Below are positions 14,554 through 60,301 of a DNA stretch of 64,000 bases, in pieces. The first letter of the stretch is position 1. Each line of letters opens with the position of its first letter. Origin of the DNA: Providencia rettgeri (GTDB taxonomy: Bacteria > Pseudomonadota > Gammaproteobacteria > Enterobacterales > Enterobacteriaceae); assembly GCF_041075285.1 (NCBI RefSeq), contig NZ_CP163512.1, positions 4,286,955-4,350,954 of the forward strand. The letters are read 5' to 3'. The notes beneath the pieces are model-generated. The model saw only the letters and a list, made by a program, of their open reading frames with translations, was not told where the DNA came from and searched no databases. The position numbers and the translations under genes are program-made.

Positions 14554-14736
14554 AACGGCATCTGATGATGCCGTTCAGACTGCTGACAAACATAACATGT
14601 TTGGCGGCAGGTTGGATAGGTTTTGAAAAAACAAGGAAAATCAATATATTGATTTTCGCCTGATAACACAAAGTGGGAAAAACCACGCTTTTATCCCACT
14701 TTGTCAACAACCTCAACGGCATCTGATGATGCCGTT
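14554..14736. terminator. Duplicated nadR/ettA terminator hairpin flanking a 139-bp repeat
   Basis: An identical 22-bp hairpin (stem AACGGCATC/GATGCCGTT) occurs at 14554-14575 and 14715-14736. Only the left copy keeps a U-run, and only for minus-strand (ettA) transcription, where it is followed by six T. The interval between the copies is exactly a repeat element seen elsewhere in the window. Confidence 0.8.
14576..14714. repeat. Terminator-associated repeat element, copy 1
   Basis: A 139-bp non-coding element. Imperfect inverted ends (AGACTGCTGAC and GTCAACAACCTC) enclose three internal palindromes: AAACAT/ATGTTT, AAAATCAATA/TATTGATTTT, and ACAAAGTGGGA/TCCCACTTTGT. Copies with the same parts occur at 23034-23174 (reversed), 29887-30027 and 60143-60282. 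No coding capacity. Confidence 0.85.
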
Positions 14737-14747
14737 CTGAGCATATT

Positions 14748-23033: not shown

Positions 23034-23174
23034 GGAGGTTGTTGACAAAGCGGGAAAAAGCGTGGTTTTTCCCACTTTGTGTTATCAGGCGAAAATCAAT
23101 GTATTGATTTTCCTTATTTATTTTCAAAACCTATCCAACCTGCCGCCAAACATGTTATGTTTGGCAGCCGTCTG
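23034..23174. repeat. Terminator-associated repeat element, copy 2 (reversed)
   Basis: 141 bp in opposite orientation to the other three copies, from GAGGTTGTTGAC to GGCAGCCGTCTG, with the same three internal palindromes. It directly abuts the creA terminator at 23175 on its right; no matching hairpin is visible on its left. Confidence 0.8.
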
Positions 23175-23199
23175 AAAGCACCTAAAAAGGTGCTTTTTT
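23175..23199 (+). terminator. Intrinsic terminator after creA
   Basis: Stem AAAGCACCT/AGGTGCTTT with a 4-nt A loop and a following T-run, between the convergent genes creA and arcA. Confidence 0.85.
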
Positions 23200-25002: not shown

Positions 25003-25071
25003 ATGCGTAATATCAGCCTGACTATTATTATTACCACCACCACCGTAACCACAGGAAACGGGGCGGGCTGA
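25003..25071 (+). CDS. thrL: thr operon leader peptide ThrL
   Basis: 22 codons reading MRNISLTIIITTTTVTTGNG then AG, matching the E. coli leader in its Ile/Thr run and its GNGAG end. Ribosome stalling at these codons when charged Thr or Ile tRNA is scarce prevents attenuator formation. An in-frame ATG at 24976 with a better ribosome-binding site (AGGGAG, 7 nt spacing) would add nine residues (MDRMRQTEF). I prefer 25003 by homology, because the putative -10 (about 24953-24958) would leave almost no leader for 24976. Confidence 0.85.
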   Translation: MRNISLTIIITTTTVTTGNGAG

Positions 25072-25094
25072 CGCATCCAAAAAATAAAAATGAA

Positions 25095-25130
25095 AAAGCC
25101 CGCATTCCTACCAGATGCGGGCTTTTTTTT
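25095..25130 (+). terminator. thr operon attenuator
   Basis: Stem AAAGCCCGCAT/ATGCGGGCTTT with a following T-run, 24 nt after the thrL stop and just before thrA. This is the classical leader-terminator arrangement. Confidence 0.92.
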
Positions 25131-25155
25131 GGTGTTAATTCAGGAGAGAAATACC

Positions 25156-29863: not shown

Positions 29864-30053
29864 AAACGGAAGCTTAGCTTCCGTTTCAGGCTGATGACAA
29901 ACATAACATGTTTGGCTGCAGGTTGAATAGATTTTGCAAATAGGCTAGAAAAATCAATATGTTGATTTTATGTTGCTAACACAAAGTGGGAAAAAACACG
30001 CTTTTATCCCACTTTGTCAACAACCTCAAACGGAAGCTTAGGCTTTCGTTTTT
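29864..30053 (+). terminator. Duplicated thrC terminator hairpin flanking a 141-bp repeat
   Basis: The hairpin AAACGGAAGC/GCTTCCGTTT occurs at 29864-29886 and, with two changes, at 30028-30053. Only the right copy has the T-run. Between them lies repeat copy 3 with no extra bases. Confidence 0.8.
29887..30027. repeat. Terminator-associated repeat element, copy 3
   Basis: 141 bp in the same orientation as copy 1, from CAGGCTGATGAC to GTCAACAACCTC, with the three internal palindromes (the middle one slightly degenerate). It lies between thrC and the Gly-rich genes. Confidence 0.85.
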
Positions 30054-60123: not shown

Positions 60124-60301
60124 AGCCCAGGTATTCTGGGCTCACCTGCTGATAAATATAAAGTGTTTTGCGGCAGGTTGAATAGGTTTAAAAAATAGAC
60201 TGGGAAAATCAATGTATTGATTTTCGCCTGATAACACAAAGTGGGAAAAAACACGCGGTTACTCCACTTTGTCAACAACCTCAGCCCAGATTTTCTGGGC
60301 T
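60124..60301 (+). terminator. Duplicated hairpin between lspA and fkpB flanking a 140-bp repeat
   Basis: AGCCCAG/CTGGGCT hairpins occur at 60124-60142 and 60283-60301; the 19-bp sequences differ at two positions. Neither has a strong U-run, and the genes on both sides run in the same direction. Confidence 0.7.
60143..60282. repeat. Terminator-associated repeat element, copy 4
   Basis: 140 bp in the orientation of copies 1 and 3, ending GTCAACAACCTC, with the middle and last palindromes conserved (AAAATCAATG/TATTGATTTT; ACAAAGTGG with CCACTTTGT). It is the only copy between co-directional genes of one operon. Confidence 0.8.

What the first reader, a model, noticed from the sequence alone, without database searches (positions are those of the whole stretch)
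14554..14737. A ~140-bp repeat family that always abuts terminator hairpins and is usually flanked by a duplicate of the hairpin
Four copies (14576-14714, 23034-23174 reversed, 29887-30027, 60143-60282) share ends and three internal palindromes. In three copies the terminator stem-loop is present on both sides with no spare bases: 22 bp identical here, 23 bp with two changes at thrC, 19 bp with two changes at lspA. The hairpin sequences differ between loci, so they come from the target, not from the element. This looks like a small mobile element (MITE) that targets intrinsic terminators and duplicates the whole hairpin. I know of no described family with this exact behaviour, but I could not search.
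Basis: partly seen in the sequence, partly recalled or inferred. Interest (0 to 1): 0.8.

Follow-up and report, generated by a model that had tools for sequence, protein, structure and literature searches.

The report
Mini-transposon that duplicates terminator hairpins
A short, gene-less mobile DNA sequence in Providencia inserts at the foot of the hairpins that end transcription and usually leaves a full copy of the hairpin on both sides; it appears to be moved by a known class of jumping gene (IS1182 family) that does the same.

Summary
The ~139-bp element has 101 matches in this Providencia genome, 78 near full length. Of 75 full copies, 61 are flanked by a repeat of the whole terminator hairpin, 18-32 bp; 0 of 74 scored lie between divergent genes. 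Relatives without the insert carry one hairpin at all four window sites, so duplication is real. It is not unprecedented: its ends match Yersinia YPAL/RU-2, described with variable duplications at dyad symmetries; its interior does not. The likely mover was found: ~1.59-kb IS1182-family elements sharing its end sequence, on plasmids of Providencia, Klebsiella, Salinivibrio and Vibrio and in other genomes. Of 27 copies inspected, 23 show exact 16-28 bp duplications centred on a hairpin; three plasmid insertions match natural one-hairpin empty sites exactly. Near-identical copies in one genome made 16-25 bp duplications, so the hairpin, not a fixed stagger, sets the length. A 2017 IS1272 paper drew this outcome as a hypothetical pathway. 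Apparently new: the MITE-IS1182 link, the scale, and the outer terminator that insertion usually leaves intact.

The parts
14554..14575 (.). left copy of the target terminator hairpin, AACGGCATCTGATGATGCCGTT (22 bp)
   Evidence: single hairpin in 19 relatives at this site
14576..14714 (+). MITE copy 1 (139 bp); left end CAGACTGCTGACAAAC, right end CTTTGTCAACAACCTC
14587..14603 (.). left subterminal palindrome CAAACATAACATGTTTG, in the place of the IS right-end palindrome
14636..14657 (.). internal palindrome GAAAATCAATATATTGATTTTC
14668..14704 (.). right subterminal palindrome ACAAAGTGGG...CCCACTTTGT, in the place of the IS left-end palindrome
14715..14736 (.). right copy of the target hairpin, identical to the left copy
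23035..23174 (-). MITE copy 2
23175..23196 (.). the only hairpin at copy 2, AAAGCACCTAAAAAGGTGCTTT; no second copy
   Evidence: single hairpin also in the G216 and G213 empty sites
29864..29886 (.). left hairpin copy after thrC (23 bp)
29887..30027 (+). MITE copy 3, after thrC
30028..30051 (.). right hairpin copy after thrC (24 bp)
   Evidence: one hairpin in 4 of 4 named Providencia empty sites
60143..60282 (+). MITE copy 4
60283..60301 (.). right hairpin copy (19 bp, two changes)
   Evidence: one hairpin in 23 of 23 relatives

Best explanation
The repeat is a MITE moved in trans by an IS1182-family transposase. SHOWN: one end is identical over 15 bases to an end of ~1.59-kb IS1182-family elements, and both ends have the same layout (terminal repeat, then a palindrome); both kinds of element sit at terminator hairpins; both leave a direct repeat equal to the hairpin, centred on its dyad and nearly always beginning with A and ending with T; empty sites have one hairpin; near-identical IS copies made duplications of 16-25 bp. 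INFERRED: the target hairpin is folded out (a cruciform, or single-stranded hairpins). [quoted passage not shown] Gap repair then copies the whole hairpin to both sides. CONSEQUENCE read from sequence: the outer hairpins mostly keep their A tract (left, 46 of 48) or T tract (right, 31 of 48), so a terminator usually remains for incoming transcription and the insertion is probably close to harmless (inference).
For: Ends and partner; the exact 15-mer CAGACTGCTGACAAA is at one end of 26 of 27 IS copies inspected. Partner is IS1182 family by NF033551: G099 and G272 copies about 490 bits and one G200 copy 393 bits against a cut-off of 270. TSD in MITEs: 61 of 75; 48 ungapped TSDs of 18-32 bp, dyad centre within 0.5 nt of the TSD centre in 45 of 48, first base A in 48, last base T in 44; TSD edges fit their own hairpin in 38 of 48, against a mean of 20.5 and a maximum of 29 in 1000 length shuffles. 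TSD in IS: 23 of 27 copies, 16-28 bp, dyad-centred in 23 of 23, at least 4 T in the 8 nt at the right foot in 23 of 23, first base A in 22, last base T in 21. Empty sites: 19, 4 and 23 relatives with one hairpin at three window sites, 2 at the fourth; 3 plasmid sites with exact 240-bp empty sites in 4 of 4 comparisons. Gene context: 38 convergent, 36 tandem, 0 divergent, against 56 divergent among 166 background gaps. A hybrid relic joining an IS end, the start of the transposase and the MITE left end lies in this genome at 1427484-1427701.
Against: No intact IS1182 transposase is in this genome (best match 36 bits), so the mover is inferred from shared ends. The MITE right end (GAGGTTGTTGACAAA) matches the left end in 11 of 15 bases only. 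14 of 75 MITE copies have no matching hairpin pair and 4 of 27 IS copies gave no clean TSD, one of them only because my region was cut. Potential pairing continues 1-8 bp beyond the TSD in 29 of 48, so the cut is not always at the last possible pair; correspondingly TSD length correlates only moderately with the length of the blindly extended stem-loop (r 0.57, 45 of 48). The GC-contrast measure of the shuffle test was only marginal (4.38 observed, shuffles up to 4.48). IS ends on plasmids were chosen with the help of the TSD score (L331 by hand), which favours finding TSDs there. DNA cruciform formation itself was not tested.
Confidence: 0.83

Rival explanations
1. The target is read as sequence, not structure: the transposase has a loose stagger and prefers A...T edges in A/T-flanked G+C-rich DNA; terminators are over-represented because insertions elsewhere were lost by selection.
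For: First base A in 48 of 48 and last T in 44 of 48 show a sequence preference at the joint; loss elsewhere would also give 0 of 74 divergent gaps; the cut often lies inside the longest possible stem (29 of 48).
Against: TSD centre equals the hairpin dyad in 45 of 48 MITE and 23 of 23 IS cases; lengths fit their own hairpin far better than exchanged lengths; near-identical, presumably recent IS copies show the same.
Confidence: 0.1
2. The hairpin is recognised not in duplex cruciform DNA but in single-stranded DNA of the replication fork or transcription bubble, or through RNA polymerase paused at the terminator.
For: All 23 IS targets with a TSD have a T tract and MITEs avoid divergent gaps, so the link to termination could be causal and not only due to palindromy.
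Against: Two-sided attack with a whole-hairpin duplication is simplest with both strands folded; IS1272, of the same family, also hits inverted repeats inside genes.
Confidence: 0.25
3. Two adjacent hairpins existed before insertion, or the hairpins belong to the element.
For: A few copies have two different hairpins as flanks (211828, 2661621).
Against: Hairpin sequences differ between loci; empty sites carry one hairpin; exact plasmid empty sites.
Confidence: 0.02
4. The MITE is moved by a different enzyme and its ends resemble the IS1182 ends by coincidence or by descent only.
For: No intact IS1182 element in this genome; right ends differ.
Against: 15 identical terminal bases at one end, same end layout, same target and same TSD type, and a hybrid IS/MITE relic in this genome.
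Confidence: 0.08

Closest known systems
YPAL / RU-2 (Yersinia palindromic sequence, ~168 bp; De Gregorio 2006 as reviewed in PMC2229807, sequence in PMC2759123)
   Same: Left 18 bases TTCAGACTGCTGACAAAC identical to window copy 1, right end CACTTTGTCAAYAACCTCA nearly so; no TA termini; target duplications of 3-26 bp; targets span or lie next to dyad symmetry
   Different: Interior not alignable above shuffled interiors; 139-142 bp instead of 168; whole-hairpin rule and IS1182 partner not stated in the passages I saw
IS1182-family insertion sequences that target palindromes (Siguier 2015, not seen, as cited in PMC4923244 and PMC5678879)
   Same: Transposase family of the partner (NF033551), palindrome targets, terminal inverted repeats
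   Different: PMC5678879 says that Siguier gave no detailed target data; the subgroup here duplicates the whole terminator hairpin
IS1272 / TnSha1 (IS1182 family, Staphylococcus; PMC4923244, PMC5678879)
   Same: Inserts at the base of terminator or other hairpins without primary-sequence consensus
   Different: IS1272 deletes or replaces the hairpin and makes no TSD; here the hairpin is duplicated, as in the hypothetical pathway b of PMC5678879
ERIC/IRU (RU-1)
   Same: Small intergenic enterobacterial MITE-like repeat
   Different: TA termini and TA duplication; neither is found here
Group IIC introns (recalled, no call)
   Same: Insert next to intrinsic terminators
   Different: Retroelements of about 2 kb without target duplication

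Membership tests
YPAL/RU-2 | terminal sequences TTCAGACTGCTGACAAAC ... CACTTTGTCAATAACCTCA | tested here: met
   alignment
YPAL/RU-2 | homologous ~168-bp interior | tested here: not met
   score 1.5, below the best of 300 alignments with shuffled interiors (15.0)
YPAL/RU-2 | target duplications of variable length at dyad symmetries; nearness to stop codons is recalled, not from a call | tested here: met
   (18-32 bp; median 44 nt from the stop codon)
MITE (non-autonomous derivative of a DDE element) | short, no transposase gene, terminal inverted repeats shared with an autonomous element, TSD | tested here: met
   its two ends match each other in 11 of 15 bases
MITE (non-autonomous derivative of a DDE element) | mobilised in trans by that element's transposase | not testable with these tools
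   needs a transposition assay
IS1182 family (partner element) | transposase over the NF033551 cut-off of 270 bits | tested here: met
   one G200 copy 393 bits, G099 and G272 copies about 490 bits; 10 analysed plasmid records annotated as IS1182 family transposase
IS1182 family (partner element) | DDE catalytic residues intact | not tested
   only Pfam matches seen: DDE and DUF772 below the gathering score for the 309-aa piece, DUF772 above it for the 93-aa piece
IS1272-type stem-loop-replacing transposition | target hairpin removed, no TSD | tested here: not met
   filled site minus IS and one TSD equals the natural empty site exactly, 3 sites
ERIC/IRU | TA termini and TA duplication | tested here: not met

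The most novel reading that the evidence does not exclude
A subgroup of IS1182-family transposases and the MITEs they move (including, by their ends, Yersinia YPAL) use a folded hairpin as target so that the duplication length is set by DNA structure and not by an enzyme ruler. By copying the whole terminator they leave a working terminator on the outer sides: a family-wide safe-landing strategy in Enterobacterales and Vibrionales.
Probability: 0.6. Interest if true: 0.75.

Novelty: new variant of a known kind. Interest (0 to 1): 0.6.

Why it matters
Most transposases have a fixed target stagger (general knowledge); here near-identical elements left 16-25 bp duplications that follow the hairpin, which is natural evidence for a route that the 2017 paper drew as a hypothesis. 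It also suggests an identity for the mover of YPAL-type repeats, and a reason why such repeats can reach about 100 copies: they land in terminators and usually leave one intact. Filled and empty plasmid pairs make the mechanism directly testable with ordinary laboratory strains.

Tried and rejected
Three relatives with 2.3-6.9 kb inserts at the first terminator were read as candidate autonomous elements; their ORFs look like ordinary genes, by eye, and none is a transposase. Seven other IS1182-like loci in the genus (L252, L254, L255, L256, L258, L262, L263) show no such end with two or fewer mismatches. Rfam has no gathering-level family for the element (15.8 kb holding three of the four copies). 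RNA folding is strong on both strands (z -6.0 and -5.2) but is expected from the palindromes, so no RNA function is claimed. Literature: YPAL with IS1182 gives 0 papers; IS1182 family with MITE and terminator gives 2 papers, off topic by listing; other searches. The primary YPAL paper is not held under the DOI I recalled, so its text was not seen and it may state more than the review does. ISfinder could not be consulted. My first placement of 60 loci assumed a wrong strand and was corrected. In one search the partner-end search was cut short by locus length and was redone with longer regions for G099 and G272 only.

Full report
1. What is there. The element runs from CAGACTG to CAACCTC, 139-142 bp, with three palindromes. 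The genus is Providencia: the closest named thrC relatives are P. heimbachae, P. rettgeri and P. vermicola at 91-93% protein identity; the species was not established. A 21-base core pattern has 71 matches in the 4.35-Mb genome with up to 3 mismatches, against 0 for the reversed control; the right end has 102 against 11. In the 510 kb fetched around such hits a profile finds 101 matches, 78 near full length; fragments far from any pattern hit would be missed. The element occurs in 23 of 24 genomes of the genus, this one included, but reached E 1e-6 in only 3 of 197 genomes drawn from the order, one being this one and only 4 candidates per genome being scored.

2. Target. By simple ORF calling, 38 of 75 full copies sit between convergent genes, 36 between tandem genes, 0 between divergent genes and 1 could not be scored; none is inside an ORF. 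Background gaps of at least 60 bp without a copy were 29 convergent, 81 tandem and 56 divergent. The element lies a median of 44 nt from a stop codon (112 gene ends).

3. Duplication. For 75 copies, 61 have a flank repeat above the 99th percentile of 1500 mismatched-locus pairings, and 50 exceed their maximum; among copies at least 92% identical to the reference it is 49 of 53, among the others 12 of 22. Fifty-one have an ungapped repeat of at least 12 bp. In the 48 of these whose repeat abuts both ends exactly, it is 18-32 bp, its centre lies within 0.5 nt of the blindly found dyad in 45, its first base is A in 48 and its last base T in 44 (the search required the outermost bases of the two copies to match each other). 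Potential pairing goes 1-8 bp further in 29 of 48, and TSD length correlates only moderately with the length of the blindly extended stem-loop (r 0.57, 45 of 48), so the cut is near, not always at, the end of pairing. When TSD lengths are exchanged between loci with the dyad kept, well-formed A...T stem edges fall from 38 of 48 to a mean of 20.5 (maximum 29 in 1000); a second measure, GC contrast, was only marginal.

4. Empty sites (read by eye). Site 14.5 kb: 19 of 23 relatives carry one hairpin and no element there, 1 (G199) carries a related element between two hairpins at the same terminator, and 3 have other inserts and were not scored; in several of the 19 a different repeat follows further downstream. 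Site lspA: one hairpin in 23 of 23 relatives. Site 23 kb: one hairpin in the two nearest relatives, and also only one in this genome, so here a copy was lost or never made.

5. The probable mover. One search listed a left end outside any MITE copy; its context is a 218-bp relic whose one end reads into MLKEPFPQQYQFETITLEELVSEDHLVR, close to the start of the G200 transposase, and whose other end is the MITE left end. NF033551 (IS1182 transposase) found elements in sister species; two in G200 have the MITE's left-end sequence and hairpin TSDs, though their reading frames are broken. tblastn with a 309-aa piece found relatives in 396 plasmid records; I analysed 10 of these records (an 11th, L329, was fetched and left aside). 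Of 27 IS copies inspected (11 plasmid, 2 G200, 13 of at least 20 in G099, 1 G272), 26 carry the exact 15-mer at one end and 23 have an exact TSD of 16-28 bp, centred on a hairpin dyad and followed by a T tract. The four others: L325 and L326 have hairpins on both sides but are rearranged, L335 was cut by my region, and L342 has no recognisable right end. Plasmid IS ends were chosen with the help of the TSD score, L331 by hand; in G099 and G272 the ends were fixed by sequence and length. In G099, a genome of another family of the order, 11 near-identical copies (6 distinct sequences, at most 21 differences in 1593 bp) have TSDs of 16, 17, 18, 18, 21, 22, 22, 23, 23, 24 and 25 bp. For three plasmid copies, leaving out the IS and one TSD gives 240 bp that occur letter for letter in related plasmids without the IS (4 of 4 comparisons).

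6. Ends. The MITE left end CAGACTGCTGACAAAC resembles the IS right end (CAGATTGATGACGAAC) and is identical over 15 bases to the IS left end; the MITE right end GAGGTTGTTGACAAAG corresponds to the IS left end CAGACTGCTGACAAAG; each end is followed by a palindrome. Yersinia RU-2 shares both ends but not the interior. The exact 15-mer occurs in 13 of 295 genomes of the order with 0 in the reversed control. Of the 26 such places outside this genome that were fetched as loci, 14 abut a hairpin and 12 do not by my test; random positions do so in 60 of 5200.

7. Mechanism. PMC5678879 (abstract, passages and part 1 of its Discussion seen) draws three outcomes of attack on a cruciform; 'pathway b', attack at the 5' feet, would duplicate the whole stem-loop. 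IS1272 itself is proposed to follow pathway a, replacement. The present elements behave as pathway b. Because both 5' feet would meet at the four-way junction, stem length would not matter, which explains variable TSDs from one enzyme. Cruciform against single-stranded hairpin is not resolved. The left hairpin loses its run of T on the inner side (1 of 48 has at least 4 T there), but 46 of 48 keep an A tract on the left outer side and 31 of 48 a T tract on the right outer side; so a complete terminator usually remains for incoming transcription. This benefit is inferred from sequence only.

8. Known or new. Papers seen: PMC2229807 (part 1 of 3 of the text, and passages), PMC2759123, PMC2847712, PMC10969869, PMC4923244 and PMC7891712 (passages), PMC5678879 as above; others only as search listings. 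The kind is known: MITEs with odd TSDs at dyad symmetries, and palindrome-seeking IS1182 elements. In this library I found no text linking YPAL and IS1182 (0 papers) or showing whole-hairpin duplication by an IS1182 element, but the primary YPAL paper and ISfinder were not available.

Noticed in passing
own genome 1427484-1427701 (L257:47-264): 218-bp hybrid relic: IS1182 left end plus transposase N-terminus joined to the MITE left end, with different hairpins on the two sides.
   Followed up: partly
own genome 47991-48131 and L325: One flanking hairpin is the reverse complement of the other (loop inverted), so hairpin copies may flip during or after insertion.
   Followed up: no
own genome 2880235, 1382510, 3233277: The two hairpin copies differ by paired changes that keep the stem, suggesting selection or intra-stem correction on both copies (by eye).
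   Followed up: no
L335/L336 (G099:502860-506062): Two IS copies in tandem separated by a single hairpin and flanked by two more: a duplicated hairpin seems to have been used again as a target.
   Followed up: partly
L220 (G199, site of window 14.5 kb): A related element sits in the orthologous terminator of another species between two different hairpins: independent reuse of one terminator, or divergence after an old insertion.
   Followed up: no
own genome, tandem gene gaps: Element orientation looks biased: 26 opposite to the genes and 10 in the same direction.
   Followed up: no
L325 (Salmonella plasmid CP053580.1): The IS1182 copy is flanked by long inverted repeats of the neighbouring sequence instead of direct repeats, a rearranged site.
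   Followed up: no
L221-L228, downstream of the terminator of window site 1: A different imperfectly palindromic repeat (GGTAGGCGGC...CTAGG) follows this terminator in several Providencia species.
   Followed up: no
window 25010-25131: Rfam Thr_leader (RF00506) upstream of the threonine operon, 86.5 bits.
   Followed up: no
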